In this document: positions 42,441 through 60,903 of the stretch, piece after piece
How positions within the stretch are numbered: the stretch's first letter is position 1
Layout: each line of letters starts with the position of its first letter
Source of the DNA: Trifolium pratense
Lineage: Eukaryota; Streptophyta; Magnoliopsida; Fabales; Fabaceae
Assembly: GCF_020283565.1 (NCBI RefSeq)
Contig: NC_060063.1
Span: 18,294,720 to 18,358,719, forward strand
Length of the DNA stretch: 64,000 bases
Direction of reading: 5' to 3'
Notes under the pieces: model-generated
Told to the model about the DNA's origin: nothing
What the model saw: the letters and a program-made list of their open reading frames with translations, nothing else
Database searches by the model: none
Position numbers and translations under genes: made by a program

Positions 42441-42722
42441 CCGGTTTCTTGGTAAAGTGAAACCCAGCTCAGCTACCTTGCCCATGTGCGTGGGCGTTAC
42501 TACCAGCCCATGGATAGAGAGATGCTGCTATTTATCGCTATAAATTACTCCATCACTCCCACAATAAATAGTACTCTGGCTCGGTTATAAGAAAATTTTC
42601 ACTTTTTATACTTCCTCTGGTTCTTTTATAACAAACAATCAATTTAATTTATTGCACCATTATTTTTCCGGTTATGCCATGTTTATAAAAATATTGGCAT
42701 GACCATTAATTTTGATGTTAAT

Positions 42723-43205
42723 TGGACTGGGCACTGAGCTTAAGGACATATCCAGTAAGCCCAATTAATATAAAAACATAGGATAGGCCCAAATCAAGCA
42801 AAACCCTAAATATCCATTAGGCGACAAGTGGCCAAGGCGTGGCTAACAACAGCGTGGCAACGCCCAGAAGGGTAATCCCGTATCGTATAAATATCTTCTT
42901 CTTCCCAGTGTTAACTGATTGACTTGAGAAGGAAGAAATCAACTTCTCATAACCGCCATAGCTTGAAGACCAAGTTTGTCATCCCTACTTTCACGCTGCA
43001 TCACCGAAGAAGACCTTGAGGACCGGATTTCTATGAATCTTAGCTTGGAGAAGAAGACTAAGCAGTCTATAAATAGCTTCATACTTTCATTTGTAAAGGC
43101 AGAGATCTTCTGACTTATAAAACTCCCAGGGTTGTTGGGATTGAACCAAGTGTAATCACACCATTTAATCAATAATACAACCCCCTTTGAGTTTTTACCA
43201 GAACA
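42723..43205 (+). repeat. 5' LTR (483 bp)
   Basis: Begins TGGACTGGGCA and ends ACCAGAACA. A TATA box (TATAAATA) is at 42886-42893; downstream signals include AATCAATAATACAA near the 3' end. Ends fixed by comparison with the 3' LTR and the TTAAT duplication. Confidence 0.96.
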
Positions 43206-43208
43206 TTT

Positions 43209-43226
43209 TGGCGCCCACCGTGGGGC
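43209..43226 (+). other. Primer-binding site
   Basis: TGGCGCCCACCGTGGGGC, 18 bases, starts three bases after the LTR. This is a typical Tat-group primer site. Confidence 0.88.
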
Positions 43227-43289
43227 TGCGGTAAAAACATTTGATCCCAGCCTATCACATCGAACTAGACAGAAATTAAACATTTCCAC

Positions 43290-46200
43290 ATGGCTGGAGA
43301 ACACAGAAATAACGATAATTCTAGTGTTAACACCTTGCAAGCCGCCGTCGTGGAAATACGGCGCTTACAGACCCAGATTGCGGCCATTGAGGCCGAAAGA
43401 ACACATGAGAAAGAAAAAGCGAAAATGATTTCAGAGGAGGAGGAAGGAGAGAGCGTCATGGACGTACAGCCTTTGGCACAACACTTATGGGATACCCAAG
43501 TCTTGGAAGCAATAAAGGTTCCTCACCTTCCTACTTTTGACGGAAAAACTGACCCTCGGGAGCATTTGATGGCAATAGGAACACAAACTGCCATAATCAA
43601 CGCTCCGGAGCATCTAAAATGTAAATTACTAGCCGGTACCTTCAAGGATGTAGCCTTGCGTTGGTACATGAACCTTCCAAGGAATTCAATAGAAAGTTAT
43701 GCTGATTTTCACAAAAAGTTCATCCACCAATTCGCCGGATCGAAACATGTGAAAGTCACGTCAACTAGCCTTTTTTCCATTCGCCAAAACCACAGCGAAT
43801 CGTTACGCAGCTTTCTCGCCAGATTTAGCGAGGCCACCATTAAGGTTTCAAATCCAAACCAAGAGATGTTCGTGGCGGCTTTCCACAATGGACTGAGAGC
43901 AGGGCATTTCAACGAATCCTTAGCCCAAAAACCAGCCTCATCAATGCAGGAGGTAAACAAGAGAGCGGAGTGTTACATAAAGGGCGAAGAGATCAACGCC
44001 GAGAAAAGGCAAAGAGATGCCAAGGAGAAGGAATATGTGGGCCGTGCTACTAAAGCGCCAGAACACCAGCGACAAAGGACTGGAGGCCATCAAGGAGACT
44101 CATGGCAAAGGCGCCATGGTAAGCCCTACCATCAACCATCAAGGAGAGAGTTCAGGAACCATCCCACCAATGAAGAGTTTACGCCATTAAATACTTCTAA
44201 GGCATACGTGTTAAACGAAATTCTTGCCAGTGGTTTGACAAACCTCCCCGCCAAAAGAACCAACAATATCCCCATGGGGCTCGACGACAACGCTTGGTGC
44301 TCCTACCACAGATGCAGAGGTCATTCTACGGAGAAGTGTTTCCGCCTAAGAGATTTGATCGAGGAGCTGATCAAAAGCGGCCACCTCTGGAAGTTCATTG
44401 ATGACGCAGCACAAGGCCGAGTCGTCGTGCCCAAAATCCCCAAGCAAGAACCACGAAATATTCCTGGGTCAGGTAAAGAACCTCCAAAAGAAAGGATCTC
44501 TGTGAATACAATAGCGGGGGGATTCTCAGGAGGAGGTGAGTCAAGCTCGGCGAGGAAACGATATGTGCGTCGCGTAATCTCAGAGATATACCTCGTGCGA
44601 CAACCACAACCACTCGCCGTCCCGGATTTGGCATTCACGGCAAAGGATGGACTGGAGGTGGCACCTCATGATGATGACCCTCTGGTAATACAAGTCCAAA
44701 TCCTGAACTGCGACGTAAAGAGAGTACTGATTGACTCAGGAAGCTCAGCAGATATTATGTACTGGGAAGCCTTCAAGGCCATGCAATTAGCGGAGGAGCA
44801 ATTGCAGCCATATGCGGGAGCTTTAGTTGGGTTTTCCGGGGAGCAGGTAGACGTAATGGGCTACGCCTCATTACTCACTACCTTTGGAGAGGGGAGTAAC
44901 ACCAAAACCATCAAAGTGCGATATTTGGTAGTCAAAACTCCATTCACCTCCTACAACATTATCATAGGAAGACCTGCTTTCAACACCTTGGGTGCGGCCA
45001 TGTCCACCCTATACCTAGCGATTAAATACCCTCTAGATAATGGAGAAGTAGGAACAGTTAGAGGCGATCAAATACTCGCCAAAAAGTGTTACGAGTCCAG
45101 TCTAAAGATAAGACATAGAACCTCCAATTCAAGTGGAGTATCCGGAGGAAGACAAGCCACAGTTCCGGGTGGTATAAACATCATTGAAAATTCGGATATG
45201 GATCCCAGAGAAGAATTTCAAGACAGAAGAGTGAGCCCTATAGAAGACCTGGAGAAAGTCCAAATCGGCGAGCACCCACACCAGACAACCAGTTTAGGGA
45301 CGGCGTTATCCCACCAAGAGAGAGGAAAAATCATCAAAATCCTGAAAGATAACGCTGATCTATTTGCGTGGAAGCCTTCAGACATGCCAGGAATAGATGA
45401 AGGGGTGATCACCCATAAGCTATCGATATCGCCCAGCATTAAACCAATCTCTCAAAGAAAAAGAAAGGTTGGAGAAGAAAGGCGAGTTGCAATAGCAGAG
45501 GAAGTAGAGAAGCTAAAAGAGGCTGGATTCATTGAGGAAATAAAATACCCTTCGTGGTTAGCAAATGTCGTCATGGTGAAAAAGGCCAACGGAAAGTGGA
45601 GGATGTGCGTAGATTTTACGGATCTAAATAAGGCATGTCCCAAAGACCCATATCCTTTGCCCAACATAGATAGGTTGATAGACGGCGCTTCAGGATGCAA
45701 GATGTTAAGCTTCATGGACGCCTACTCCGGGTATAATCAAATAAAGATGAACCCCACCGACGCCCGCCATACAACCTTTATGTCTAACACCTGCAATTAT
45801 TTTTACAACGTTATGCCCTTTGGGCTGAAGAATGCGGGGGCAACATATCAAAGGCTGATGGACAGGGTATTCTCCGAACAAATAGGAAAGAACCTGGAAG
45901 TGTACATTGATGACATGGTAGTGAAAACTTCCGAAGAAAACCAGCATGACGAAGATCTTCTGGACATCCTGGGTTCGGTAAGGAAATACAACATGAGGTT
46001 AAACCCAGCAAAATGTTCTTTCGGAGTGCAAGCAGGAAAGTTCCTAGGTTTCATGCTCACCAACAGGGGAATAGAGGCCAACCCTGAAAAATGTCAAGCC
46101 ATCATAGACATGAGAACCTACTTCCGTGAAAGAGTCCAAATTTTGACAGGCAGAATAGCGGCGTTGTCCAGATTCCTATCATGCGCGGGCGAGAAAGGTT

Positions 46201-46604
46201 TTCACTTCTTCGCATCTCTTAAGAAAAACGAAAGGTTCTCATGGACGCCCGAATGCGAAGAAGCCTTCAAACAACTAAAGGAATTCTTAGCATCTCCGCC
46301 AATCTTGACGCGCCCATTACCAGGCAATACCCTTTACCTTTATCTTGCAGTTTCTGATAGAGCCTTAAGTTCAGCTTTAGTTCAAGAAGTAGAGGGCGAA
46401 GAGAAGCCTATATACTTTGTAAGTAGAACCCTTAGAGGAGCGGAGATAAGATATCAGAGGATCGAGAGGTTATCTCTCGCGGTAGTTGTCACGGCTAGGA
46501 AGTTAAGACAATACTTTCAAAGCCACAAAATAGTTGTTAGGACAGATTACCCTATTAAGAACGTCCTCAGAAAGCCAGACTTAGCGGGAAGGATGGTAGC
46601 ATAG
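43290..46604 (+). CDS. gag-pol: Gag-protease-RT-RNase H part of the gag-pol frame (ends at premature TAG)
   Basis: 1,104 residues. Gag domain about 80-175 (PHLPTFDGKTDPREHL...ALRWYMNLP), Cys/His knuckle CSYHRCRGHSTEKC near 332, retropepsin with active-site D482 in LIDSGSSADIMY, RT with YIDD at Y872 (45903), then RNase H with YLYLAVSDRALSSALVQE. The frame stops at TAG 46602-46604, but the next stop-free stretch (46605-48425) is in the SAME frame and continues the conserved segment before the second RNase H, so this is a single nonsense change, probably from a Trp codon in a WSVELSEFDI-type motif. The intact family form should therefore be one polyprotein of about 1,710 residues. Confidence 0.94.
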   Translation: MAGEHRNNDNSSVNTLQAAVVEIRRLQTQIAAIEAERTHEKEKAKMISEEEEGESVMDVQPLAQHLWDTQVLEAIKVPHLPTFDGKTDPREHLMAIGTQTAIINAPEHLKCKLLAGTFKDVALRWYMNLPRNSIESYADFHKKFIHQFAGSKHVKVTSTSLFSIRQNHSESLRSFLARFSEATIKVSNPNQEMFVAAFHNGLRAGHFNESLAQKPASSMQEVNKRAECYIKGEEINAEKRQRDAKEKEYVGRATKAPEHQRQRTGGHQGDSWQRRHGKPYHQPSRREFRNHPTNEEFTPLNTSKAYVLNEILASGLTNLPAKRTNNIPMGLDDNAWCSYHRCRGHSTEKCFRLRDLIEELIKSGHLWKFIDDAAQGRVVVPKIPKQEPRNIPGSGKEPPKERISVNTIAGGFSGGGESSSARKRYVRRVISEIYLVRQPQPLAVPDLAFTAKDGLEVAPHDDDPLVIQVQILNCDVKRVLIDSGSSADIMYWEAFKAMQLAEEQLQPYAGALVGFSGEQVDVMGYASLLTTFGEGSNTKTIKVRYLVVKTPFTSYNIIIGRPAFNTLGAAMSTLYLAIKYPLDNGEVGTVRGDQILAKKCYESSLKIRHRTSNSSGVSGGRQATVPGGINIIENSDMDPREEFQDRRVSPIEDLEKVQIGEHPHQTTSLGTALSHQERGKIIKILKDNADLFAWKPSDMPGIDEGVITHKLSISPSIKPISQRKRKVGEERRVAIAEEVEKLKEAGFIEEIKYPSWLANVVMVKKANGKWRMCVDFTDLNKACPKDPYPLPNIDRLIDGASGCKMLSFMDAYSGYNQIKMNPTDARHTTFMSNTCNYFYNVMPFGLKNAGATYQRLMDRVFSEQIGKNLEVYIDDMVVKTSEENQHDEDLLDILGSVRKYNMRLNPAKCSFGVQAGKFLGFMLTNRGIEANPEKCQAIIDMRTYFRERVQILTGRIAALSRFLSCAGEKGFHFFASLKKNERFSWTPECEEAFKQLKEFLASPPILTRPLPGNTLYLYLAVSDRALSSALVQEVEGEEKPIYFVSRTLRGAEIRYQRIERLSLAVVVTARKLRQYFQSHKIVVRTDYPIKNVLRKPDLAGRMVA

Positions 46605-46613
46605 TCCGTTGAG

Positions 46614-48425
46614 TTGTCAGAATTTGACATCATCTTCTCACCTAGAGGGGCCATCAAATCTCAAAGGCTGGCCGACTTTGTATTAGAAATGTCTACCCCA
46701 CCAACAACTGAAAAAGCTTCGCCTTGGACCCTATCAGTTGACGGAGCCTCCAACGTACGGGGAAGTGGAGCTGGAATAGTATTGGAAGGACCAGATGGCG
46801 TTATGATAGAACAATCATTACGCTTCGCCTTTAAAGCTAGCAACAACCAAGCCGAATACGAAGCTTTGATAGCAGGAATGAAGCTAGCGAAAGATATGGA
46901 AGTGAAGGATTTGAAAGCCATGAGTGATTCCCAACTGGTCACCAACCAAGTATCAGGAAAATTTCAAACGAAAGAGCCACAATTAATCAAGTACGTGGAG
47001 GGGGTACAAAGTCTAGCTAAATGCTTTAACTCGTTCGAATTAGTTTATGTTCCCCGCGAGCAAAACATGAGAGCAGATTTATTGTCAAAATTGGCGAGCA
47101 CGAAAAAACCAGGGAGTCATAGAACCGTTATCCAAGAAACTATCAAAACTCCCAGCATTAGCGGAGAGGATCTGATGATGGTGATAGAGGAGGAAGACTG
47201 GAGGTCACCCATAATCCGGTACCTCCAAAAGGATGAACTCCCAAAAGAGAAGGAAAAGGCGTTCAAATTAAAAAAGATGGCGGCATGGTACTCCATGGTC
47301 GGAGATAAGCTCTACAAAAGAGGATTCGCATCCCCCCTCCTTCTGTGTGTTAGCAATGAAGAAGCAAAACACATTATGTCTGAAGTGCATGAGGGTTCGT
47401 GCGGCAGCCATATTGGTTCAAGAGCTTTAGCAGGAAAGATATTAAGAGCAGGTTTTTACTGGCCGGATATACATGATGATACCGCCATGTACGTAAGAAA
47501 CTGCGATAAATGCCAACGACACGCTAATTTGCATCACGTACCAGGAGAGCCATTGAAGTCAGTATTATCCCCATGGCCTTTTTTCATGTGGGGCGTGGAT
47601 ATCGTTGGTCCATTTCCGGTTGGTTACAAACAAGCGCGATGGATCATCGTCGCCGTGGATTATTTTACAAAATGGATAGAAGCAGAGCCAGTATCTAGTA
47701 TTTCGGCGGAACAGGTTAAAATCTTTTATTGGAAGAAAATCATTTGCAGGTTTGGTTTGCCCAAGTATATTGTATCAGATAACGGCACCCAGTTCGCCAG
47801 TGAAAGAGTCGTAGAGTTCTGTCAAAGCAAGGGAATTCAAAATACCTTCATATCGGTGGAGCACCCACAGGCTAACGGACAAGCGGAATCAGCAAATAAG
47901 GTTATACTAAGGGCATTGAAAAGGAGGCTAGCTAGCAAAGGCGAGGCCTGGGTAGCCCACATCTCGCCTATTCTTTGGTCGTATCACACTACCCCCCAAT
48001 CATCAACAGGAGAAGCACCATTCACAATGGTCTATGGTTCAGATGCAATGATCCCTGTAGAGATAGATCCTCCTAGTTGGCGCAGAGAAACCATAACGCA
48101 AGAAGAAAACAATAGAGCCCTGGAAGAGAATCTAGACATGATTGAAGAGAAAAGGGAAAGAGCACATTTCAGAGAATTCGCCATAAAGCAAAGAGCCGCT
48201 AGGCGTTATAATACCATAGTCAGACAAAGAAAGTTTCAAGAAGGCGATTTAGTGTTGAAAAGACCCATGGGAAAAGACAAAGGAGGAAAATTCGCTGCAA
48301 ACTGGGAAGACCCTTTTCGTGTGCAAGAAGCTTTTGAAGGAGGAGCATACCGCTTAGAAACAATGGAAGGAAGGACTCTGCCCAGAACTTGGAATATAGC
48401 AAACTTGAAGTTCTACTACAGTTAG
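46614..48425 (+). pseudogene. gag-pol: Second RNase H and integrase half of gag-pol, after the TAG
   Basis: 603 residues in the same frame as the upstream part. Archaeal-type RNase H about 38-160 (LSVDGASNVRGSGAGIVLEG, NNQAEYEALIAGMKLA, SDSQLV). Integrase HHCC zinc finger about 258-300 (HEGSCGSH...CDKC), catalytic core with D in WGVDIVGPF, D in VSDNGTQF and E in GQAESANK, then a C-terminal domain ending NIANLKFYYS. The presence of both RNase H types places the element in the Tat lineage. Without its own initiation site it can only be made by read-through or internal initiation, so it is classed as the broken part of the polyprotein. Confidence 0.9.
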
Positions 48426-48662
48426 CCATGGAGCGTCACACCACTGATGGAAGAATAAGTAAAATCTATTTCTTTTCAGCACTATTTAAAATAATGATGT
48501 ACAAGAACCATTTTCATCGATAAATAAAAACAATGAGACACTCTTTTCTCCTGTGCAAACAGGAGTTTTTATTGAGGCTCATTGAATTTCAAAATTTCAG
48601 TTTTTATTTTATGCATGTCTATTTTCACAGTCAAAATATCTACGCCAATAAAGGTCAACCTG

Positions 48663-49301
48663 ATTAAGTTACGGGCTCTGAACCAACAAAAAAAAAAATG
48701 GTTATCTCAAACTTGAGCTCTGAATCTTTATTAAAGATCAACTCAGATGTGAGCGCTGAACCAACAACAAAAAATGGTTATCTCAAACTTGAGCTCTGAA
48801 TCTTTATAAGAGATCAACTCAGATGTGAGCGCTGAACCAACAAAAAAAAATGGTTATCTCAAACTTGAGCTCTGAATCTTTATTAAAGTTCAACTCAGAT
48901 GTGAGCGCTGAACCAACAAAAAAAATGGTTATCTCAAACTTGAGCTCTGAATCTTTATTAAAGATCAACTCAGATGTGAGCGCTGAACCAAGAACAAAAA
49001 AAATTGGTTATCTCAAACTTGAGCTCTGAATCTTTATTAAAGATCAACTCAGATGTGAGCGCTGAACCAACAAAAAAAATGGTTATCTCAAACTTGAGCT
49101 CTGAATCTTTATTAAAGATCAACTCATATGTGAGCGCTGAACCAAGAACAAAAAAAAAATGGTTATCTCAAACTTGAGCTCTGAATCTTTATTAAAGGTC
49201 AACTCAGATGTGAGCGCTGAACCAACAAAAAAAAAATGGTTATCTCAAACTTGAGCTTTGAATCTTTAAAGATCAACTCAGATGTGAGCGCTGAACCAAG
49301 T
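48663..49301 (+). repeat. Tandem array of ~79-bp units after pol
   Basis: About eight copies of a unit containing GGTTATCTCAAACTTGAGCT, CTGAATCTTTATTAAAG and CAACTCAGATGTGAGCGCTG, differing mainly in the length of an A-run. Tandem repeats between pol and the 3' LTR are frequent in Tat elements (family knowledge). Confidence 0.92.
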
Positions 49302-49304
49302 TTA

Positions 49305-49484
49305 AAGTTGAAATGCTTTGGCGCTACCTGTAAATCTTACGAGTAGGGGGCGTCAGAAAAAGACAAGTTGAAATGCTTTGGCGCTACCTGTAAATCTTAC
49401 GAGTAGGGGGCGTCAGAAAAAGACAAGTTGAAATGCTTTGGCGCTACCTGTAAATCTTACGAGTAGGGGGCGTCAGAAAAAGAC
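49305..49484 (+). repeat. Three perfect 60-bp tandem repeats
   Basis: The unit AGTTGAAATGCTTTGGCGCT...GGGGGCGTCAGAAAAAGACA occurs three times without a mismatch that I can see. Identical units imply very recent expansion. 49485-49836 shows no gene. Confidence 0.93.
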
Positions 49485-49836
49485 ACAGCGAAGAAAGGCG
49501 AGATTATCAACACCGCCAGAAAAAGCTTATACATAACCAAAGCAAGGCGATTCATCACAACGCCAAAACAATTGCAACCACCAAAAAAGGCATCAGGTAT
49601 AAAGTTATTCATATATAATTATATTTAAAGTATCAAAGACATCGCAGGCGCAAGATTAAAAATGATAGAAGGTGTTACCTCACAACGCAATATGAAGACA
49701 GGAAATCAAAGAAGTCAAGAAATTAATAAAGACCCCGTGAAGGGAAAAATGTTCAAGCCACTAAAGGGCATACAAAAATAATTACAAAAGCCACAGAAGG
49801 GCAAGATAAATCCATTACAGCAAAAGAGAAAAGCAC

Positions 49837-51946
49837 TCATGGAGGAGGGATATAAGGGACGAGCTTCCCATCAACAATCTGATTCATCGCATCCACTTCG
49901 CCTAGGCGCTTGGCATCAAGATCTGGAAAAAGCAACTTGACTTGCTCAATAGCAAAAGAGAAGCCTTCATCATACTGGTTGGCGGCATAGAGTTGAAGCT
50001 CTGAGACATCCTTCTCCAACCTGGCCTTCTCCTCGCCCAAGGTTCCCGCATAAAATATCGCCTCATCCCGCTCCTTTGAAAGCTTTGAAATTTTTTCATC
50101 TTGAGCAGCAGCGTTCTCTTTAAGCTTAGTCTCGGAGGCGGCATAGCTTTCCTTAACCTTGGCCAGCTTCTCTTCATACTCTTTCTTCAGCCTCTCCGCC
50201 TCGCCTTCCTGATCTTTCTTCAGCTTTTGAATATCCTCCTCCAGCCTCGTCTTGGTCTCAGAGTATCTCTTCTCAATATCAGCAAGGTTATCATCAACTG
50301 TCTTCACCTTTCGCCTCGCTTCCTGAACTTCCTGCTCCTGGCGATTTGTCAGCAGATAGTTGAGAAGAGTACCCTTAACTTCGTACTCCAGAGCTTTCTT
50401 CCTCAAATCCTCTGTCGAAGTATTGGTGAAGCGAGTCATATCGCCTACCATTGTCACTCCCCTCTCGATAAATTCCAAAGGATCAAAGGAGCTCCAGGAG
50501 AGGGAAGCAGCAGTAGCGGCGTCATCACTGGGAAGCTGAGAAGAGCTAGAAGCCACGCCCTTATCTTTGGCGACACCACCGGCAGTCTGAGAAGTACCCT
50601 TGATTTTTTGCTTTTTGGCAGGAGGCGGGGCGACAGCCTCAGTCTCCACTACCCCAGCAGCAGCGTCTTCTTTTCGTGGGATGGCGATACTGATCCGGCC
50701 ATCATGCTTTTTCTTACTTCGCCCCTCTTTCGAAACAGCTTCCTCCACTTGCAGCTGTTTCAAGGGGTCGTCAACAGCAGCATCGGGTTTGGCTTTCTGC
50801 TGGCGAGCTTTAGCCAAAAATGCTAGCCTCTCCTCATTGGAAATAGTCCTCATTCTCTCTACAAAAACAAGAAAAGCAAGAAAAAATGAATTAGCAATAA
50901 GGCGAGACCAATATTAAACAAAAGGAGGAAATACAAATTTATTACTTACGTAAATACTCCTCCAAGGCTCCACTATTACCCTCATACCTAAGAATCTCAG
51001 CAGAATCCATGAGGGCATAAGAATCAAGAAAATTGACCGTGTCTTTCTCAAAGTCACTCAAGGCCTCAAAGATGGTTCCCTTGATAAGTCTAGGGTTATC
51101 GGTCCAGTAGAAGGGAAACAGAGGATCGTCAACCTCGTCATACATCAAGTCCGGGAGTTGCTCGCCACAGCGAACCCGTAGGAAGGAATCCTTAAAGTTT
51201 TTGAAGTTAGAGGCGTACAAACTGAGGAGACGACGGTTAGGTTGACTGCTAAGGGAAACCAGAGATTGAGGTTTTAAGTTTTTTATTTGGTAGAAGGAGA
51301 AGAAAACGCCAATTGAGGGTTTTAGGTCAAAACCTAAACACATTACCTCAAAGGCTTTGATGAAGGCCCAACTGTTAGGATGGAGTTGGGTGGGGGCGAC
51401 ATTAAGAACTTTCAACATCTCCGCCTCAAAGGAAGTAAAAGGCAGCCAGATGTTGAGGGGTTGGATCACGTTGGTATAAAGGTAGAAATAATCTGGCAGG
51501 GTGTCACTTTTAGCAAATACGAACTCGTCCTCTCTGACAGGCTCGGTTATAATAGAATCTTCATGAGAGGGGTCAGAAAGCTTGACGGCTTTCCTAAAGC
51601 TTCTCACCATTTCCGTATTGGTATACTTCGAAGAGACTTCCATGGTGACAGGAGTATAACCAGCAACAACCAGATCTCGACAAGGGTTCTTCCGCTTTCC
51701 TGTGAAAGAGGAAGGGGAGATTATGACGCAATCACTGTCATTACCGCTATCACTACTGCTATCATTATCACTACTACTACTACTCCCAACATCAAAACCC
51801 CACAATTCTGAGTAAAATCCTCGGCTATTAAGAACGCCGTTAGCCCTAGTATAGTGGGCGCGAACTTGTTGCGCCCACTCGAGATAACCAGGAGAAGAAA
51901 CAGGAACTCTCCCCTCATTATCATCTAACTCCCTCAAAATAACCAT
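49837..51946 (-). CDS. Antisense gene A: spliced gypsy-type-transposon-domain/coiled-coil protein
   Basis: Two exons on the strand opposite gag-pol: 51946-50950 and 50858-49837. The 91-bp intron (50949-50859) has donor GTAAGT and acceptor TTTTTGTAG; exons total 2,019 nt, giving 672 residues in frame. Residues 1-90 contain a Ser/Asp-rich stretch followed by CVIISPSS. Residues about 155-320 (YLYTNVIQPLNIWLPFTSFE...FDLKPSIGVFFSFYQIK) resemble the plant family annotated 'putative gypsy type transposon' (PF04195, by recall). The C-terminal half has Lys-rich nuclear-signal-like segments (RSKKKHDGR, KKQKIKG) and a long coiled coil (about 475-630, rich in KLKKDQEGEAERLKKEYEEK). Function unknown. A TATA-like TATAAGTA is at 52188-52195. 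The module's second copy lies at 57775-59172. Confidence 0.85.
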
Positions 51947-52187
51947 TTTTTTCTAAATCTAATCAGAAAAATTATTAGGGTTCCTACTCAGGACAAACCT
52001 AATTAGCGAAAAGAGGAAAGGTATGAAATGAAATACCTTAAGAAACTGATGAAAACTTCGAGCGAGGGATTGGAGTCGTCCTAAACAAAAATCGTTGAGA
52101 AGAATCGTCGAAAATGTGGAGAAGAGAGCGCGACTGAAGATGAAAATCCGTTAGAAGAAGTAAAGTAAAAGGAATGAATGGAAGTCC

Positions 52188-52195
52188 TACTTATA
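52188..52195 (-). promoter_or_regulatory. TATA box candidate for antisense gene A
   Basis: TATAAGTA on the minus strand, 242 bases upstream of the gene A ATG. The same motif at the same distance is in the inverted copy (57526-57533). Confidence 0.5.
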
Positions 52196-52605
52196 AAGTT
52201 TTAAACCCTTTCGTCTGAATCGAAGTTTTAAAGTTGGAACGGGTAATATCATACGCATCGTCGGATCATATACGTGTCAAAAGCGCGTATCTCGAGAGTA
52301 AGTTTAAGAAGATTTATCGTCAGATAGTTGACAACAACGCCTAGGGGCGAAGTCGGCCTCGAAGCACACCGCGCCTCAAGAATGATCACGCCAAAAATAC
52401 GAACCTTCCCTTTTTTTTATTAAGGCGTAATAGAAGTTAAAAGGGAAAACGCCCGAAAGGAAGAGATTCAAGATTAAGGAGAAAGCAAAACACAGGAGCA
52501 ACAAATTCAACCTTAGACTGAAAAAGAAATCTTTATTAATTGAGAAAAATAAAGGTACAACGATAGAAAGCAAAGTTACAAAGAAAAACTAGTCCTAAAA
52601 TCCTA

Positions 52606-52929
52606 TCACTCAGATTCCGAATCCTTCTGCACAGGCTCAGGAAGCGTCATCTTGGATTCCACGGTAATCCGGGATCCATCTTCTTCACCCGACGAAGAAG
52701 CACGAGAAGAAAGCTCGGGAGGAACGTACGTCTCCAGAAACGAAACATAATCCCTGTCAGCGCTATCAGAATCAGAGGTATCAGAAGAAAGAATGATAAC
52801 CTCCACCTTTTTGACTTCTTTAGCTCTTCGGGAATGAGTGGAGTTTGAAGTGGTTACCTCCACCTTTTTCTTCCTTCGCTGAGATTGAGACTTCTCAGCA
52901 ATGATTGTTTTGGCATTTTTCCTTTCCAT
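52606..52929 (-). CDS. Antisense gene B: small basic/acidic protein with SUMO-interaction-like motif
   Basis: 107 residues. The first 45 are strongly basic (KSQSQRRKKK, SRRAKEVKK); then VEVIILSSDTSDSDSADRD, a hydrophobic core followed by Ser/Asp, which has the form of a phospho-regulated SUMO-interaction motif; the tail is acidic and Ser-rich. TATAAATA at 52984-52977 is about 50 bases upstream of the ATG, and AATAAA (minus strand of 52532-52537) lies about 70 bases after the stop, so this is a compact pol II-type unit. The frame is intact in both copies of the module (second copy 56795-57118, three amino-acid changes). Function not known. Confidence 0.75.
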   Translation of the reverse strand: MERKNAKTIIAEKSQSQRRKKKVEVTTSNSTHSRRAKEVKKVEVIILSSDTSDSDSADRDYVSFLETYVPPELSSRASSSGEEDGSRITVESKMTLPEPVQKDSESE

Positions 52930-52976
52930 CGTGAGGACTCAGAACAAGTTGATGAAAATGTGAGTTCAGCGGTTAA

Positions 52977-52984
52977 TATTTATA
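52977..52984 (-). promoter_or_regulatory. TATA box candidate for antisense gene B
   Basis: TATAAATA on the minus strand, about 48 bases before ATG 52929; conserved in the inverted copy at 56740-56747. Confidence 0.65.
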
Positions 52985-53104
52985 GCCAATTGCATTTAAC
53001 CCTAGCATCGTTATTAACGGTCATAATTAATGCTTAGACGCTCATAACCACTTTGGTTTGACTGTCTCGAAAAGCGTAAATGGAAAGGCGAACAAGCAAA
53101 AACT

Positions 53105-53847
53105 TCATGGCATGGTAGAGCCCCCCAATTCACCAGCATCGGCGACGGCGATACTGTGCATTTCCTCCAATGCCCGTTTCACCCTCTTCGCCTTCACCAT
53201 ATTTTCTTCAATAGGCTTCAAATCTTCTCGCAGCTCGCCCTGTTTATCCAAAAGGTCCATTAGAGAGTGACGCCTGGAAATCAGCTTAGTAACATCATCC
53301 CTAATTTCGCCTTGAAGAGCCCTCTTTCTCTTCAAAAGCGGCTTCATTTCTTTGTTCAGCATCGCCAAACGCCAAACGGTCGTCCACTCTTCGTTCCTCA
53401 TTAAAGCATATACCCAGGATCTCCTCCTGCACGCCCATGGTTTCCTTCGTGATCTCTATCTGGCTATCAACAGCTTCAGTAACTTCGGAATGGCACTCCT
53501 TGACGTTCTCCACAGCAATCACAAAGGAACGAAGAGTGGAAGGGAATCACAGCAATCACAAAAGAGGCACTATCCTTTAACTCCTTCTCCAGACGCAATA
53601 CACTATCAAGAAAGCGTTTCTCCTCCTTGGTTAATCTCCAGCAATAGTCATTAAGCTCTTTGACGAATTCCGAAAATTCACCAAAATCATCCATTAGCTC
53701 CTCCGTACTTATGGTCAGCATACGCCGGAGCCGCTTGATGACGGGAGAAGCGGGAGATTGACCACATTCAAAGGGAGGATTTTTGGGAGACATGCTTTTG
53801 AACAGAGGTCTTAAAATTGAGCAAGCGAGAGAGGATGAATTTATCAT
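53105..53847 (-). pseudogene. Antisense gene C: coiled-coil protein, frameshifted copy
   Basis: The frame opens at 53847 but the better start is the ATG at 53793 (MSPKNPP), because TATAAATG at 53869-53862 is only about 15 bases from the first ATG. The product is helical: SPVIKRLRRML, EFSEFVKELNDYCWRLTKEEKRF, then charged coiled coil to VADAGELGGSTMP (stop 53107-53105). Compared with the other copy it is broken twice: a 37-bp insertion near 53525-53562 flanked by CACAGCAATCACAAA, and a 7-bp duplication (CGCCAAA) near 53365-53380, so the protein is read in three frames. The undamaged length implied by the pair is about 214 residues. Function unknown. Confidence 0.75.
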
Positions 53848-53861
53848 GTCACCGGACGCTT

Positions 53862-53869
53862 CATTTATA
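53862..53869 (-). promoter_or_regulatory. TATA box candidate for antisense gene C
   Basis: TATAAATG on the minus strand, 69 bases upstream of the preferred ATG at 53793; conserved at 55676-55683 in the inverted copy. Confidence 0.55.
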
Positions 53870-54052
53870 GGTAAAAAATATCATCGTGGTAGCAGTAAAA
53901 CGGTTGATAGATATTGCGTATGAACATAGGAACGTGCGCCAGAAAGTGGGAGAAGACGTGACAAAAAATTATTTCGCGCCACGACTCTGAGAGGGAAAAT
54001 TCGAATCATATTCAAGCACTTTACTCCTTTGGACTTCGTGCTTGGGGGGCTA

Positions 54053-54535
54053 TGGACTGGGCAATGGGCTTAAGGACATATCCAGTAAGCCCAATTAATA
54101 TAAAAACATAGGATAGGCCCAAATCAAGCAAAACCCTAAATATCCATTAGGCGACAAGTGGCCAAGGCGTGGCTAACAACAGCATGGCAACGCCCAGAAG
54201 GGTAATCCCGTATCGTATAAATATCTTCTTCTTCCCAGTGTTAACTGATTGACTTGAGAAGGAAGAAATCAACTTCTCATAACCGCCATAGCTTGAAGAC
54301 CAAGTTTGTCATCCCTACTTTCACGCTGCATCACCGAAGAAGACCTTGAGGACCAGATTTCTAGGAATCTTAGCTTGGAGAAGAAGACTAAGCAGTCTAT
54401 AAATAGCTTCATACTTTCATTTGTAAAGGCAGAGATCTTCTGACATATAAAACTCCCAGGGTTGTTGGGATTGAACCAAGTGTAATCACACCATTTAATC
54501 AATAATACAACCCCCTTTGAGTTTTTACCTGAACA
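54053..54535 (+). repeat. 3' LTR (483 bp)
   Basis: Same length as the 5' LTR with seven substitutions and no indel by my alignment. Preceded by the purine-rich CTTGGGGGGCTA (polypurine tract) and followed by TTAAT. Confidence 0.96.
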
Positions 54536-54540
54536 TTAAT

Positions 54541-55017
54541 CATGATGAATTAGTGGCTTAATTTGATATGAACCGTGAATCTTAGACAATTGAGGTCCAA
54601 CTAGAAGGGAGAATAATTTTTTTTTTACGGAAGAAGGGAGAATAATTGAAATAATGATAATGGTGCAACAAGTTAGAAAATTAAAATGCCAATTTGTTAT
54701 CTAAAATGACCTGCCTGTTACTTATATTTTCGCTGGCTCATTTTTTCTTATATTTTGGAATGGAGGGGGTGCATCTTAAAATAGTGACTCAATTAAATAG
54801 TAAAAATTATAAAAAGTTGATATTTTTAAAATATTCATCAAATTAAATCCAACAACATTTTATATGGAGTAAATATTTATTTTTTATTTATTAATAGGAA
54901 AATATGGTCAAATAGTTTATTTTTTCATTATAATTTTCACATTTAATTAAATGATTGAATTTTTTTTAGTCAAGTAACTTAGTGGTTAACAATTTCACCT
55001 TTAAGGTGAATAAGTGC
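54541..55017. other. Spacer between inverted Tat copies, with an interrupted SINE
   Basis: AT-rich, no gene. The last ~55 bases (54962-55017: TAGTCAAGTAACTTAGTGGTTAAC...AAGGTGAATAAGTG) look like the box-A half of a tRNA-derived SINE related to 23777-23959, cut by the LTR that starts at 55018. Its other half is not next to the truncated end at 59172. Confidence 0.6.
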
Positions 55018-55485
55018 TGTTCTGGTAAAAACTCAAAGGGGGTTGTATTATTGATTAAATGGTGTGATTACACTTGGTTCAATCCCAACAACCCTAGGAG
55101 TTTTATAAGTCAGAAGATCTCTGCCTTTACAAATGAAAGTATGAAGCTATTTATAGACTGCTTAGTCTTCTTCTCCAAGCTAAGATTCCTAGAAATCCGG
55201 TCCTCAAGGTCTTCTTCGGTGATGCAGCGTGAAAGTAGGGATGACAAACTTGGTCTTCAAGCTATGGCGGTTATGAGAAGTTGATTTCTTCCTTCTCAAG
55301 TCAATCAGTTAACACTGGGAAGAAGAAGATATTTATACGATACGAGATTACCCTTCTGGGCGTTGCCACGCCTTGGCCACTTGTCGCCTAATGGATATTT
55401 AGGGATTTGCTTGATTTGGGCCTATCCTATGTTTTTATATTAATTGGGCTTACTGGATATGTCCTTAAGCCCATTGCCTAGTCCA
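55018..55485 (-). repeat. LTR of the inverted Tat copy (468 bp)
   Basis: Matches the 483-bp LTR in reverse complement apart from a 15-bp deletion near 55369. The missing bases lay between two GCCACGC repeats, so slippage or recombination between short direct repeats explains it. Confidence 0.93.
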
Positions 55486-55751
55486 CAGCCCCCCAAGCAT
55501 GAAGTCCAAAGGAGTAAAGTGCTTGAATATGATTCGAATTTTCCCTCTCAGAGTCGTGGCGCGAAATAATTTTTTGTCACGTCTTCTCCCACTTTCTGGC
55601 GCACGTTCCTATGTTCATACGCAATATCTATCAACCGTTTCCCCACTTACTGCTACCATGATGAGATTTTTTACCTATAAATGAAGCGTCCGGTGACATG
55701 ATCAATTCATCCTCTCTCGCTTGCTCAATTTTAAGACCTCTGTTCAAAAGC

Positions 55752-56396
55752 ATGTCTCCCAAAAATCCTCCCTTTGAATGTGGTCAATCTCCCGCTTCTC
55801 CCGTCATCAAGCGGCTCCGGCGTATGCTGACCATAAGTACGGAGGAGATAATGGATGATTTTGGTGAATTTTCGGAATTCGTCAAAGAGCTTAATGACTA
55901 TTGCTGGAGATTAACCAAGGAGGAGAAACGCTTTCTTGATAGTGTATTGCGTCTGGAGAAGGAGTTAAAGGATAGAGCCTCTTTTGTGATTGCTGTGGAG
56001 AACGTCAAGGAGTTCCATTCCGAAGTTACTGAAGCTGTTGATAGCTAGATAGAGATCACGAAGGAAACCATGGGCGTGCAGGAGGAGATCCTGGGTATAT
56101 GCTTTAATAAGGAACAAAGAGTGGACGACCGTTTGGCGATGCTGAACAAAGAAATGAAGCCGCTTTTGAAGAGAAAGAGGGCTCTTTAAGGCGAAATTAG
56201 GGATGATGTTACTAAGCTGATTTCCAGGCGTCACTCTCTGATGGACCTTTTGGATAAACAGGGCGAGCTGCGAGAAGATTTGAAGCCTATTGAAGAAAAT
56301 ATGGTGAAGGCGAAGAGGGTGAAACGGGCATTGGAGGAAATGCACCGTATCGCCGTCGCCGATGCTGGTGAATTGGGGGGCTCTACCATGCCATGA
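55752..56396 (+). pseudogene. Antisense gene C, second copy (two nonsense codons)
   Basis: One continuous frame from ATG 55752 (or 55698) to TGA 56394-56396, interrupted only by TAG at 56046-56048 and TAA at 56187-56189. In the other copy these positions read CAG and CAA, so both are C-to-T changes, as expected from deamination of methylated cytosine. TATAAATG at 55676-55683 precedes it. The insertions that break the first copy are absent, so the frame of about 214 codons (coiled coil, basic and acidic patches) is the family form. Function unknown. Confidence 0.75.
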
Positions 56397-56794
56397 AGTC
56401 TTTGCTTGTTCGCCTTTCCATTTATGCCTTTCTTTTTATGTTTGTAGTTTGCTTCTGTATTTCAGGACTTTTGTAGTTTTTTCTTTGTATTTTTGCTTCC
56501 ATTGTATTTCCCTTCCGGTAATTTGAATTTCAAACATTTCCTTCCCATTATGTGTTGTTCTTTTATTTCTGCCAGTATCGCTTCCTTTTTGCAGTTTCCA
56601 ATAACTTAAATGGGTCAAATCTCGACTCCTTGGAAATATAAAGATGACGCTTTTCGAGACAGTCAAACCAAAGTGGTTATGAGCGTCTAAGCATTAATTA
56701 TGACCGTTAATAAAGATGCTAGGGTTAAATGCAATTGGCTATAAATATTAACTGCTGAACTCACATTTTCATCAACTTGTTCTGAGTCCTCACG

Positions 56795-57118
56795 ATGGAA
56801 AGGAAAAATGCCAAAACAACCATTGCTGAGAAGTCTCAATCTAAACGAAGGAAGAAAAAGGTGGAGGTAACCACTTCAAACTCCACTCGTTCCCGAAGAG
56901 CTAAAGAAGTCAAAAAGGTGGAGGTTATCATTCTTTCTTCTGATACCTCTGATTCTGATAGCGCTGACAGGGATTATGTTTCATTTCTGGAGACGTATGT
57001 TCCTCCCGAGCTTTCTTCTCGTGCTTCTTCGTCGGGTGAAGAAGATGGATCCCGGATTACCGTGGAATCCAAGATGACGCTTCCTGAGCCTGTGCAGAAG
57101 GATTCAGAATCTGAGTGA
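56795..57118 (+). CDS. Antisense gene B, second copy
   Basis: 107 residues, intact, differing from the first copy at three positions (Ile/Thr, Gln/Lys, His/Arg). The VEVIILSSDTSDSDS motif is unchanged. TATAAATA is at 56740-56747 and AATAAA near 57186-57191. The extra 214 bases absent from the other copy lie upstream at 56420-56640 and are T-rich, probably the 3' UTR of gene C. Confidence 0.75.
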   Translation: MERKNAKTTIAEKSQSKRRKKKVEVTTSNSTRSRRAKEVKKVEVIILSSDTSDSDSADRDYVSFLETYVPPELSSRASSSGEEDGSRITVESKMTLPEPVQKDSESE

Positions 57119-57774
57119 TAGGATTTTAGGACTAGTTTTTCTTTGTAACTTTGCTTTCTATCGTTGTACCTTTATTTTTCTCAATTAATAAAGATTTCTT
57201 TTTCAGTCTAAGGTTGAATTTGTTGCTCCTGTGTTTTGCTTTCTCCTTAATCTTGAATCTCTTCCTTTCGGGCGTTTTCCCTTTTAACTTCTATTACGCC
57301 TTAAAAAAAGGGGAAGGTTCGTATTTTTGGCGTGATCATTCTTGAGGCGCGGTGTGCTTCGAGGCCGACTTCGCCCCTAGGCGTTGTTGTCAACTATCTG
57401 ACGATAAATCTTCTAAAACTTACTCTCGAGATACGCGCTTTTGACACGTATACGATCCGACGATGCGTATGATATTACCCGTTCCAACTTTAAAACTTCG
57501 ATTCAGACGAAAGGGTTTAAAACTTTATAAGTAGGACTTCCATTCATTCCTTTTACTTTACTTCTTCTAACGGATTTTCATCTTCAGTCGCGCTCTCTTC
57601 TCCACATTTTCGACGATTCTTCTCAACGATTTTTGTTTAGGACGACTCCAATCCCTCGCTCGAAGTTTTCATCAGTTTCTTAAGGTATTTCATTTCATAC
57701 CTTTCCTCTTTTCGCTAATTAGGTTTGTCCTGAGTAGGAACCCTAATAATTTTTCTGATTAGATTTAGAAAAAA

Positions 57775-59172
57775 ATGGTTATTTTGAGGGAGTTAGATGA
57801 TAATGAGGGGAGAGTTCCTGTTTCTTCTCCTGGTTATCTCGAGTGGGCGCAACAAGTTCGCGCCCACTATACTAGGGCTAACGGCGTTCTTAATAGCCGA
57901 GGATTTTACTCGGAATTGTGGGGTTTTGATGTTGGGAGTAGTAGTAGTAGTGATAATGATAGCAGTAGTGATAGCGGTAATGACAGTGATTGCGTCATAA
58001 TCTCCCCTTCCTCTTTCACAGGAAAGCGGAAGAACCCTTGTCGAGATCTGGTTGTTGCTGGTTATACTCCTGTCACCATGGAAGTCTCTTCGAAGTATAC
58101 CAATACGGAAATGGTGAGAAGCTTTAGGAAAGCCGTCAAGCTTTCTGACCCCTCTCATGAAGATTCTATTATAACCGAGCCTGTCAGAGAGGACGAGTTC
58201 GTATTTGCTAAAAGTGACACCCTGCCAGATTATTTCTACCTTTATACCAACGTGATCCAACCCCTCAACATCTGGCTGCCTTTTACTTCCTTTGAGGCGG
58301 AGATGTTGAAAGTTCTTAATGTCGCCCCCACCCAACTCCATCCTAACAGTTGGGCCTTCATCAAAGCCTTTGAGGTAATGTGTTTAGGTTTTGACCTAAA
58401 ACCCTCAATTGGCGTTTTCTTCTCCTTCTACCAAATAAAAAACTTAAAACCTCAATCTCTGGTTTCCCTTAGCAGTCAACCTAACCGTCGTCTCCTCAGT
58501 TTGTACGCCTCTAACTTCAAAAACTTTAAGGATTCCTTCCTACGGGTTCGCTGTGGCGAGCAACTCCCGGACTTGATGTATGACGAGGTTGACGATCCTC
58601 TGTTTCCCTTCTACTGGACCGATAACCCTAGACTTATCAAGGGAACCATCTTTGAGGCCTTGAGTGACTTTGAGAAAGACACGGTCAATTTTCTTGATTC
58701 CTATGCCCTCATGGATTCTGCTGAGATTCTTAGGTATGAGGGTAATAGTGGAGCCTTGGAGGAGTATTTACGTAAGTAATAAATTTGTATTTCCTCCTTT
58801 TGTTTAATATTGGTCTCGCCTTATTGCTAATTCATTTTTTCTTGCTTTTCTTGTTTTTGTAGAGAGAATGAGGACTATTTCCAATGAGGAGAGGCTAGCA
58901 TTTTTGGCTAAAGCTCGCCAGCAGAAAGCCAAACCCGATGTTGCTGTTGACGACCCCTTGAAACAGCTGCAAGTGGAGGAAGCTGTTTCGAAAGAGGGGC
59001 GAAGTAAGAAAAAGCATGATGGCCAGATCAGTATCGCCATCCCACGGAAAGAAGACACTGCTGCTGGCGTAGTGGAGACTGAGGCTGTCGCCCCGCCTCC
59101 TGCCAAAAAGCAAAAAATCAAGGGTACTTCTCAGACTGCCGGTGGTGTCGCCAAAGATAAGGGCGTGGCTTC
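57775..59172 (+). pseudogene. Antisense gene A, second copy, truncated in exon 2
   Basis: Exon 1 57775-58771 and exon 2 from 58863, with the same 91-bp intron (58772-58862, GTAAGT...TTTTTGTAG). The exon 1 protein looks identical to the first copy, although synonymous DNA changes exist (for example TCG for TCA near 57915). Exon 2 differs at three residues (Val/Ala, Gln/Arg, Thr/Ala) and is cut at 59172, so the coiled-coil half is missing. The following stop comes from copia LTR sequence. TATAAGTA is at 57526-57533. Confidence 0.85.
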
Positions 59173-59228
59173 TAAACTTGACTAAAACACAATTCAACCC
59201 CCCCTTCTTGTGTTTTCACACCTTCAAT

Positions 59229-59241
59229 TGGTATCTAGAGC
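59229..59241 (+). other. Copia primer-binding site, altered
   Basis: TGGTATCTAGAGC resembles the usual initiator-Met tRNA complement TGGTATCAGAGC with one extra T. Confidence 0.55.
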
Positions 59242-59296
59242 TCTGGTCTGTTACTTTCACTTAACAGTGAGACAGTAAAGATCTTGTGAGAACACT

Positions 59297-60903
59297 ATGT
59301 CTGGAGGAGACGATAGTAGCACTAGAACAACCGGTGAAGCCGGTGATGCCAGTGGTGCTGGTGGTGGTCCTAGAAATGCTTTTGGTTTTGACTACTTAAG
59401 TAATGAATCAGATGAACATAGTGGCAATAGGAAAGCCCCTATATTCAATGGTGATGCATCATTATTTGAGTGGTGGAAGGAAAGACTGTATAGCAATATT
59501 ACTGCTATTGATCATGAGTTGTGGGATTTGGTTGGGCTGGGAGTAACTTTTGAAAACTTAAATGAACATGAAAGATTGTCCATTGAGCATAGAAAGTTAC
59601 TCACACCAGCTAACTTAAAAACCTACACTAAGCATCATAGAGTAAAGGACATTGTTGTTGGTGCTATTAGACATGAAGATTATGTCAGAATAGAAGACAA
59701 GTCTACTGCTAAATCTATCTTTGACTCTATGTGTGCTACCTATGATGGTAATGAAAAGGTTCAAGAGGCTAAGGCTAGTCTCTTGATAAGGCAATATGAA
59801 CTATTCACTATGCAACAAGATGAAAACATTGAAACTATGTTTACAAGGTTTCAAATCCTTGTATCTGGTCTTAAAGCTCTTAAGAGAAGTTATTCCACCT
59901 ATGACCATGTTCAGAAGATTCTGAGAAGTCTTCCTATTGCTTGGAGACCTAAGGTCACTGCAATAGAAGAAGCTCAAAATCTCAAGACTCTGAGTCTTGA
60001 GGCTCTGATAAGCAATCTCAGAAGCCATGAGATGGTTCTGAATGCTGATTCAGAAGCTAAGAAGAAGTCCAAGTCTGTGGCTTTACAGTCAACTAGGACT
60101 ACTTCCAAAGCTCTTAAGACTCAACTTCTTGACTTTGAGGAGGAATCTTCTGCAGATGGTCAAGAGGAGGAAATGGGTGAAGATGAGTTTGCTTTATTCA
60201 CCAAGTTTCAGTAATGGAACAGATTTAACAAAAGAAATTTCAGAGGTAACAGCTCCAGAAACTTTGTCAGCAAAAAGGATGATCAGAAGAACTGCTTCAA
60301 CTGTAAGAAGCCAGGACACTTTATTGCTGACTGTCCAGAAATGTCTGCCAAAGACAAAAACAAAAGATACAGCTCAAAGAAGCAACAATTTAAGAGCAAA
60401 TTGAAAAAGAGTCTGATGGCTACTTTTGAAGAGCTATCATCTGAGGAAGAAGTTGAGGAAGAGGAAGAGGCAAATCTAGCCCTGATGGCTTCAACTGACT
60501 CAGATGCAGACTCAGAGGATGAATCAGAATCAGATTCAGAAGTAACAGATGAGGTATTTTCTGACTGTTCTAAATCTCAACTTATAACTGCACTTAACAA
60601 GGTCATTGAGAAACATCTCAGAGTGTTAAGTAAACAAAAAGTTTTACAAGAAAAGCTTAACACTCTGACTGAACAAGCAGAACATTTTCAAGGTCTATAT
60701 CAAGAAACTCTGAATAGAGTAAATGACTTTGAAAAGGGTTGTGCTGTTTGTCACAAACCTATTGATGAGCAGGAAATAGCTCTTCAACAATTTGTGCATC
60801 TCAACCTTGGGAAGAGCAAAGCTGCTAATAGAATTTATAATGTTTTGAGACATAGAGGAGAAGGACTTGGCTATGAATATGGTAGACATACTCAAAGCTG
60901 AAG
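59297..60903 (+). pseudogene. gag: Copia Gag with a premature TAA and a 3' frame change
   Basis: First part 59297-60214 (305 residues): Gly/Ser-rich start, then the UBN2-type Gag (KAPIFNGDASLFEWWKERLY, TAKSIFDSMCATYDG, QYELFTMQQDENIETMFTRFQ, LPIAWRPKVTAIEEA). TAA at 60212-60214 interrupts it; the same frame continues with the zinc knuckle CFNCKKPGHFIADC (about 60281) and an acidic/coiled-coil tail (to TGA 60901-60903) holding a Cys-rich CAVCHKPIDEQE motif. The next segment is in another frame. Gag would form particles; this copy cannot make the full protein. Confidence 0.85.

What the first reader, a model, noticed from the sequence alone, without database searches (positions are those of the whole stretch)
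49837..53869. LTR retrotransposon carrying a three-gene antisense module, each gene with its own TATA box
Seen: between pol and the 3' LTR of a complete Tat element lie three frames on the opposite strand (672, 107 and about 214 residues), each preceded by a TATA-like box, with AATAAA after gene B. The same boxes at the same distances are in a second copy (55676, 56740, 57526). Known: Tat-lineage elements of plants often have extra antisense ORFs of unknown role. Inference: this family has a module with independent promoters that could act apart from the LTR, for example in nuclear targeting, silencing escape or partner control.
Basis: partly seen in the sequence, partly recalled or inferred. 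Interest (0 to 1): 0.86.

Follow-up and report, generated by a model that had tools for sequence, protein, structure and literature searches.

The report
Spliced three-gene antisense retrotransposon module
A red clover jumping gene carries three extra protein genes on its opposite strand, each with its own promoter box and one interrupted by an intron, and selection has kept all three working, which suggests that the element makes its own helper proteins from a separate backward-running gene set.

Summary
The window (red clover, Trifolium pratense) contains an LTR element with 483-bp LTRs and a TTAAT target duplication. Between pol and the 3' LTR lie three minus-strand genes. Gene A is whole only when spliced: two open frames joined by a 91-nt GT-AG intron give 672 residues and carry the TRP28 domain (PF04195). 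Gene B has 107 residues. Gene C has 214 residues in 13 of 20 readable copies (one of these 212) but is broken in both window copies.

New evidence: the intron has the same phase in 62 of 62 junctions taken from the 120 best copies. It also sits at the same place in one distant locus of the same genome (exon 1 50%, exon 2 33% identical). That locus repeats the order pol-A-B-C, a TATA box before each gene and AATAAA after B. Median dN/dS is about 0.10 (both A exons), 0.24 (B) and 0.04 (C).

Antisense TRP28 frames are already known as a hallmark of Retand elements, and an own promoter and nuclear protein are in print for maize Grande. New here, as far as the papers I could search show, are the conserved antisense intron, the three-gene architecture and the selection test. 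Transcription and function are inferred, not shown.

The parts
42718..42722 (.). Target site duplication TTAAT (5' side; 3' copy at 54536-54540)
   Evidence: LTR ends; letters read
42723..43205 (+). 5' LTR, 483 bp
   Evidence: 7 differences from the 3' LTR, 3 of them transitions
43290..46604 (+). gag-pol, first part (gag, RT, start of RNase H); ends at an in-frame stop
   Evidence: Pfam RVT_1 3e-29, Retrotrans_gag 7.5e-14; stop seen
46614..48425 (+). pol, second part (RNase H, integrase)
   Evidence: Pfam RVT_3 7.9e-21, rve 7.2e-15
48678..49485 (.). Tandem arrays: about 8 copies of 76 nt (154-nt double unit) and 3 copies of 60 nt
49837..50858 (-). Gene A exon 2 (basic linker, long helix)
   Evidence: frame; acceptor; dN/dS median 0.106
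50859..50949 (-). Gene A intron, 91 nt, GTAAGT...TTTTTGTAG, phase 1
   Evidence: 62 of 62 junctions examined; same position and phase in the distant locus
50950..51946 (-). Gene A exon 1 with TRP28 domain (PF04195)
   Evidence: Pfam E 3.7e-7, 30.7 bits against a cut-off of 26.2; dN/dS median 0.097
52190..52195 (-). TATA box of gene A (TATAAG)
   Evidence: 19 of 22 copies, 243-258 nt before the ATG
52532..52537 (-). AATAAA after gene B; none lies between C and B in copy 1, so probably shared by both
   Evidence: 66-75 nt after B in 21 of 21 copies; copy 2 has one more at 56709, between C and B
52606..52929 (-). Gene B, 107 aa (basic N-terminus, then serine/aspartate-rich stretch and DYxxFLxTYxP motif)
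   Evidence: alignment; dN/dS median 0.242
52979..52984 (-). TATA box of gene B (CTATAAATA)
   Evidence: 21 of 21 copies; longest unchanged run upstream of B, 9 columns in 20 sequences
53105..53793 (-). Gene C, 214 aa in the family; frame broken here
   Evidence: intact in 13 of 20 copies with its start; dN/dS median 0.044
53864..53869 (-). TATA box of gene C (CTATAAA)
   Evidence: 20 of 20 copies, 72-78 nt before the family's ATG
54053..54535 (+). 3' LTR, 483 bp
55018..59174 (+). Second copy, inverted: LTR, gene C (early stop), B 56795-57118, A exon 1 57775-58771, intron, start of exon 2; cut by a Copia element

Best explanation
This is a Retand-type (Tat clade) Ty3/gypsy element of red clover whose long pol-3'LTR region is a second, minus-strand gene cluster: three protein-coding genes, each with its own RNA polymerase II core promoter. 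C and B lie in tandem and probably share one poly(A) site. A is a two-exon gene whose intron can be removed only from minus-strand RNA, so the life cycle through the sense genomic RNA keeps it. Most likely mechanism (inferred): host polymerase II transcribes the three genes from the integrated copy independently of the LTR. The products are accessory proteins of the element. Protein A has a globular TRP28 domain, a basic lysine-rich linker and a long helix, and probably enters the nucleus as a coiled-coil dimer. The strongly constrained protein C and the small adaptor B probably join it to control the element's own transcription, silencing or nuclear RNA/cDNA traffic. Shown here by sequence: genes, intron, conserved boxes, selection on the proteins, deep conservation of the layout. 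Inferred: transcription, splicing, complex formation, nuclear role.
For: Intron with conserved donor, phase and acceptor in 62 of 62 junctions, 86-126 nt long, and in a distant locus at the same place. Median dN/dS: exon 1 0.097 (20 of 22 copies), exon 2 0.106 (18 of 22), B 0.242 (19 of 21), C 0.044 (13 of 20); pol on 5 gap-free copies 0.034-0.084. In A and B the stated frame has the lowest value of six. TATA and AATAAA positions fixed. The distant locus repeats pol-A-B-C, a TATA box before each gene and AATAAA after B. Of 13 T. repens and T. subterraneum gene models aligned (33-43% identical), 12 run through the splice junction without a gap there. Predicted structure of a red clover homologue (P0001): confident domain at residues 105-360, later one helix of 138 residues.
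Against: No RNA data were available. The sampled copies are the best exon-1 matches, so their state of preservation is biased upward. 3 of 22 copies lack the exact A box. Copy 2 has an AATAAA between C and B, so a shared C/B end is not universal. Fold searches gave no known relative for the TRP28 domain, so DNA binding is not supported here. B and C were found by sequence only in Trifolium and one metagenome protein, so the full three-gene set is not shown outside the genus. The distant family is represented by a single locus.
Confidence: 0.62

Rival explanations
1. The antisense RNA itself, not the proteins, is the product: minus-strand transcripts pair with the genomic RNA and feed or modulate small-RNA silencing.
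For: Raised for such elements in PMC7264820 (passage). The two window copies form an inverted pair that could give double-stranded RNA.
Against: An RNA-only role does not explain dN/dS of 0.04-0.24, codon-position patterns such as 35/19/152 variable first/second/third positions of 212 codons in gene C, or an in-frame intron.
Confidence: 0.1
2. The proteins serve transport rather than regulation: export of the genomic RNA or import of the integration complex.
For: An LTR element protein elsewhere does this (CERV of Cer1, needed for export of genomic RNA; title and abstract start). Gene A has lysine-rich stretches (GRSKKKHDG, PAKKQKIKG) in its sequence, and basic stretches recur in many aligned homologues.
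Against: Nothing here separates transport from transcription control. An own promoter apart from the LTR fits an early regulator better than a late transport factor (inference).
Confidence: 0.2
3. The frames are a relic of a DNA transposon or captured host gene inserted in reverse, now passively copied.
For: The Pfam name 'Transposase_28' (its description is 'Putative gypsy type transposon') and the opposite orientation.
Against: Strong purifying selection on all three genes. Same three-gene order at a locus whose pol is only about 69% identical. Among 62 homologues of A, names given are mostly hypothetical or 'transposase (putative) gypsy type'; two bear host-like names (P0010, P0054).
Confidence: 0.03
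4. Exon 1 and exon 2 of gene A are two separate proteins and the 'intron' is only a spacer.
For: Exon 2 opens with an ATG just after the acceptor. Plain ORF listing shows two frames. The published survey used unspliced ORFs (methods).
Against: Donor, acceptor and phase unchanged in 62 of 62 copies although length varies from 86 to 126 nt. Same intron position in the distant locus, where a second intron is also needed.
Confidence: 0.05

Closest known systems
Retand lineage elements with antisense TRP28 ORFs (Vicient 2025, PMC11963269; outline and parts 1-3 of 5 of the text)
   Same: Long pol-3'LTR region, antisense PF04195 protein, tandem arrays, LTR and internal sizes inside the reported ranges
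   Different: That survey counted ORFs of at least 600 bp from ORF Finder; the word 'intron' is counted 0 times in it. It reports no selection test or promoter boxes in the parts read.
Maize Grande gene23 (Gomez-Orte 2013; paper not held; known from PMC7264820 passages)
   Same: Antisense accessory gene between pol and 3' LTR, own promoter, nuclear product
   Different: One gene; whether it has an intron could not be checked. Here three genes with a box each.
PvRetro13 and relatives of common bean, ORF2 (Gao 2014, PMC4093653, passages)
   Same: Legume Ty3/gypsy elements, reverse-oriented protein, some with an SMC hit
   Different: A single ORF2 of 436-849 aa in the table rows shown; 0 hits for 'intron' in the text
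HBZ antisense gene of HTLV-1 (mentioned in PMC11963269; splicing, bZIP domain and 3' LTR start recalled)
   Same: Antisense, spliced, nuclear accessory protein of a retroelement
   Different: Here the boxes lie outside the LTR and no bZIP family was matched
Ogre and EVADE introns (PMC12786077 passage)
   Same: Functional introns inside plant LTR elements
   Different: Those introns serve the element's own (sense) transcripts; this one is on the opposite strand

Membership tests
Retand lineage (Tat clade, Ty3/gypsy) | RT sequence groups with Retand RTs in a tree | not tested
   No reference RT set was at hand; RT domain itself found (RVT_1)
Retand lineage (Tat clade, Ty3/gypsy) | LTR 315-1,194 bp, internal region 7,380-12,869 bp, pol-3'LTR 2,933-6,566 bp (ranges) | tested here: met
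   483 bp, 10,847 bp and 5,627 bp (coordinates)
Retand lineage (Tat clade, Ty3/gypsy) | Antisense ORF with TRP28 (97% of clusters) | tested here: met
   PF04195, 30.7 bits, cut-off 26.2, minus strand
Retand lineage (Tat clade, Ty3/gypsy) | Tandem array in pol-3'LTR (about half of elements) | tested here: met
   48678-49485
Grande gene23 type: antisense accessory gene with own promoter | Own promoter upstream of the gene | tested here: inconclusive
   Position-conserved TATA boxes; no transcript data
Grande gene23 type: antisense accessory gene with own promoter | Nuclear protein | not testable with these tools
   Basic lysine-rich stretches only
HBZ-like antisense retroviral gene | bZIP domain (recalled) | tested here: not met
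   No bZIP family among Pfam matches of the A, B and C pieces at E up to 1
HBZ-like antisense retroviral gene | Antisense promoter inside the 3' LTR | tested here: not met
   All three boxes lie at 52190-53869, outside the LTR 54053-54535; further starts inside the LTR were not looked for

The most novel reading that the evidence does not exclude
The element carries a dedicated minus-strand regulatory arm: three polymerase II genes with own promoters, tandem C-B sharing a terminator, and spliceosomal introns that are kept because the sense genomic RNA cannot lose them. Their products (a TRP28/coiled-coil protein, a highly constrained helical partner and a small adaptor) form one nuclear complex that has evolved with the element since before two clover families split (pol about 69% identical). 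Many ORF pairs counted as separate in ORF-based surveys of Retand elements would then be exons of one gene.
Probability: 0.35. Interest if true: 0.75.

Novelty: new variant of a known kind. Interest (0 to 1): 0.62.

Why it matters
Antisense ORFs in plant Tat/Retand elements have been known for years, with little evidence on whether their proteins matter. A conserved antisense intron and dN/dS of 0.04-0.24 show that the encoded proteins, not just the open frames, are what selection keeps. A three-gene unit gives the field a defined set of products to test. It also warns that ORF-based surveys split this gene. If the proteins act on transcription or silencing, plant LTR elements would have a counterpart of retroviral accessory genes, encoded on the other strand.

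Tried and rejected

SUMO-interacting-like stretch in gene B (VEVIILSSDTSDS): its core is conserved among the 11 aligned Trifolium B proteins, but the distant locus's B has no such hydrophobic core, so I dropped it as a mechanism.

A precisely intron-free copy (L077) was looked for as proof of splicing: the copy has a deletion across the junction instead.

A 5'UTR intron in gene A: a donor-like TTAAG|GTATTT is common upstream, but one copy (L025) lacks the GT and the distant locus's interval is only about 48 nt; not claimed.

Public gene models that join C or B to A (P0004, P0005, P0006, P0010): they reuse the exon-2 acceptor but may be prediction artefacts, so not counted as transcript evidence.

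First integrase count (2 of 14 intact) misled me: it used the first stop in copies with indels and partial matches. The genome search shows 66 of 73 scored integrase matches without an internal stop (5,626 candidates, only the best scored), so I draw nothing from that count.
Full report
What was checked. The window lies in a 413.6-Mb genome. A protein match annotated as Trifolium pratense sits on a contig of 53,636,235 bases, the length of the genome's contig C1, so I take it as red clover. The element runs from 42723 to 54535 with 483-bp LTRs that differ at 7 positions, and TTAAT on both sides. Copy 2 lies inverted at 55018-59174 and is cut by a Copia element.

Gene A is a spliced gene. Plain reading gives frames of 334 and 338 residues. 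The first stops inside GTAAGTAA; the second opens just after a polypyrimidine-AG. I examined 22 loci (20 fetched copies and the two in the window) and 40 further junctions, 62 in all out of the 120 best exon-1 matches scored of 649 candidates; 116 of those 120 have no stop inside exon 1. In 62 of 62 the donor CGTAAGT, the AG acceptor and the phase are kept while the intron varies from 86 to 126 nt. Intron identity between the 22 copies is about 81% (median, gaps left out) against 89% for exon 1 in 20. One further locus (L077, outside that list) has a deletion across the junction.

Selection. Nei-Gojobori pairwise estimates for pairs with dS above 0.05: exon 1 median 0.097 (184 of 190 pairs; 20 of 22 copies, 2 broken ones dropped), exon 2 0.106 (150 of 153 pairs; 18 of 22 copies; three broken and one cut by Copia dropped), gene B 0.242 (166 of 171 pairs; 19 of 21 copies, 2 broken ones dropped), gene C 0.044 (78 of 78 pairs; 13 of 20 copies with a start motif; the 7 shorter ones dropped). 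The other two forward frames of exon 1, exon 2 and B give medians of 1.08-1.82. One opposite-strand frame is also low (0.144, 0.185, 0.323), as expected where its silent positions coincide, but higher than the stated frame each time (the control frames used a looser cut, dS above 0.02). No six-frame control was run for C. Pol on five gap-free copies gives 0.034-0.084 over ten pairs. So gene C is about as constrained as pol. Copies were chosen as best exon-1 matches, which favours intact exon 1, but B, C and exon 2 were not selected for.

Promoters and ends. TATA boxes: B at 54-57 nt before the ATG in 20 and at 42 nt in one (L028, offset start) of 21 loci; C at 72-78 nt in 20 of 20; A at 243-258 nt in 19 of 22, missing as an exact hexamer in L011, L019 and L023. 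L011 has no B or C, and L014 has no C start. CTATAAATA is the longest unchanged run upstream of B (9 columns, 20 sequences); upstream of A the box is not among the longest runs. AATAAA lies 66-75 nt after B in 21 of 21. None lies between C and B in copy 1, but copy 2 has one at 56709, so a shared C/B end is an inference. Gene A has no AATAAA within 250 nt downstream in 21 of 22 loci (L010 has one at 227 nt; copy 2 is cut and tests nothing there); TGTAA recurs at 10-20 nt in 21 of 22 and again at 45-55 nt in 17 of 22.

A distant locus has the same layout. Searching the genome with P0014 (38% identical to gene A) found C7:980000-993000. Read piece by piece, it has pol about 69% identical on one strand and, on the other, A exon 1 (50%), A exon 2 (33%), a B-like 96-aa frame with DEDYAVFLQTYDPQE (40% over 40 residues, E 3e-4) and a C-like 184-aa frame (28% over 180 residues, E 1e-21), in the same order. 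Gene A there has an intron at the same place and phase (TTAC|GTAAGT...CTTCTGCAG|GTAGAATG) and a second one further on. TATA boxes precede B (CTATAAATAT, 83 nt), C (TATATATA, about 40 nt) and A (ATATAAGG, 197 nt), and AATAAA follows B. It is one locus, so this is one independent comparison, not a survey.

Distribution. Homologues of A: 62 proteins, the named ones all from legumes (Trifolium, Vigna, Mucuna, Cajanus, Stylosanthes), one from a metagenome; only the 7,991 candidates sharing most words were scored. In the alignment of 19 of them, 12 of 13 T. repens and T. subterraneum models run through the splice junction without a gap at it; P0037 is gapped there, P0035 shortly after, and the Mucuna P0049 and Vigna P0052 and P0058 have gaps nearby. 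These are gene models, not transcripts. C: 17 proteins, 16 from Trifolium and one from a metagenome at 42%. B: 16, all Trifolium, with a B-like tail in T. subterraneum P0037 and, by eye, P0027.

Proteins. The predicted structure of a red clover gene A protein (P0001) shows a confident domain at 105-360, a disordered linker, one helix at 478-615 and a small C-terminal cap. No known fold was matched. Gene C has no Pfam family above cut-off in its two pieces; that it is helical is my reading of the sequence, not a prediction run.

Known and new. Vicient 2025 (outline and parts 1-3 of 5) found antisense TRP28 ORFs in 97% of Retand clusters and tandem arrays in about half, and proposed a regulatory role. 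PMC7264820 (passages) states that Grande gene23 is transcribed antisense from a promoter upstream of it and that its product localizes to the nucleus. A 2025 review says plant LTR elements generally lack introns, naming Ogre and EVADE as exceptions (passage). In my literature searches I saw no report of an intron in an antisense retrotransposon gene of plants, but the Grande and Retand papers are not held and only open-licence papers are searched. Hence: new variant of a known kind.

Mechanism. Shown: genes, intron signals, boxes, selection, layout. Inferred: minus-strand transcription and splicing (very likely), nuclear complex of A with C and B (plausible), control of transcription or silencing (my first choice, about 0.45), transport of RNA or cDNA (about 0.2). 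One point follows from the anatomy: an intron readable only on the minus strand cannot be lost through the sense genomic RNA, so antisense genes of retroelements can keep introns.

Noticed in passing
L009-L028 and window copies, genes C, B, A exon 1, A exon 2, integrase, LTR: Trees of the pieces disagree with high local support: L019, for example, groups with different copies in C, B, exon 1 and exon 2. The subfamilies look mosaic, as if recombined by template switching.
   Followed up: partly
42723-59174: Two related elements lie in opposite orientation about 480 nt apart, giving long inverted repeats (1,873-nt arms at 99%) that could produce hairpin RNA.
   Followed up: no
59174-59297: The Copia element that cuts copy 2 has its gag ATG only 123 nt after the break, leaving little room for a 5' LTR; a public model (P0013) carries both TRP28 and Copia gag domains.
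   Followed up: no
P0004, P0005, P0006, P0010: Public red clover gene models join gene B or C to gene A exon 2 at the same acceptor: either alternative splicing over the whole module or prediction artefacts.
   Followed up: partly
genome G000, integrase matches: At least 73 close integrase copies, 66 without an internal stop and many in open frames of 1,727 aa: the family was recently active.
   Followed up: no
52018-52039: A short inverted repeat AAGGTAT...ATACCTT between the A box and its ATG recurs, by eye, in many of the 22 aligned copies; function unknown.
   Followed up: no
37826-39079: NPH3-domain plant gene on the minus strand beside the element (PF03000, E 1.1e-77).
   Followed up: no
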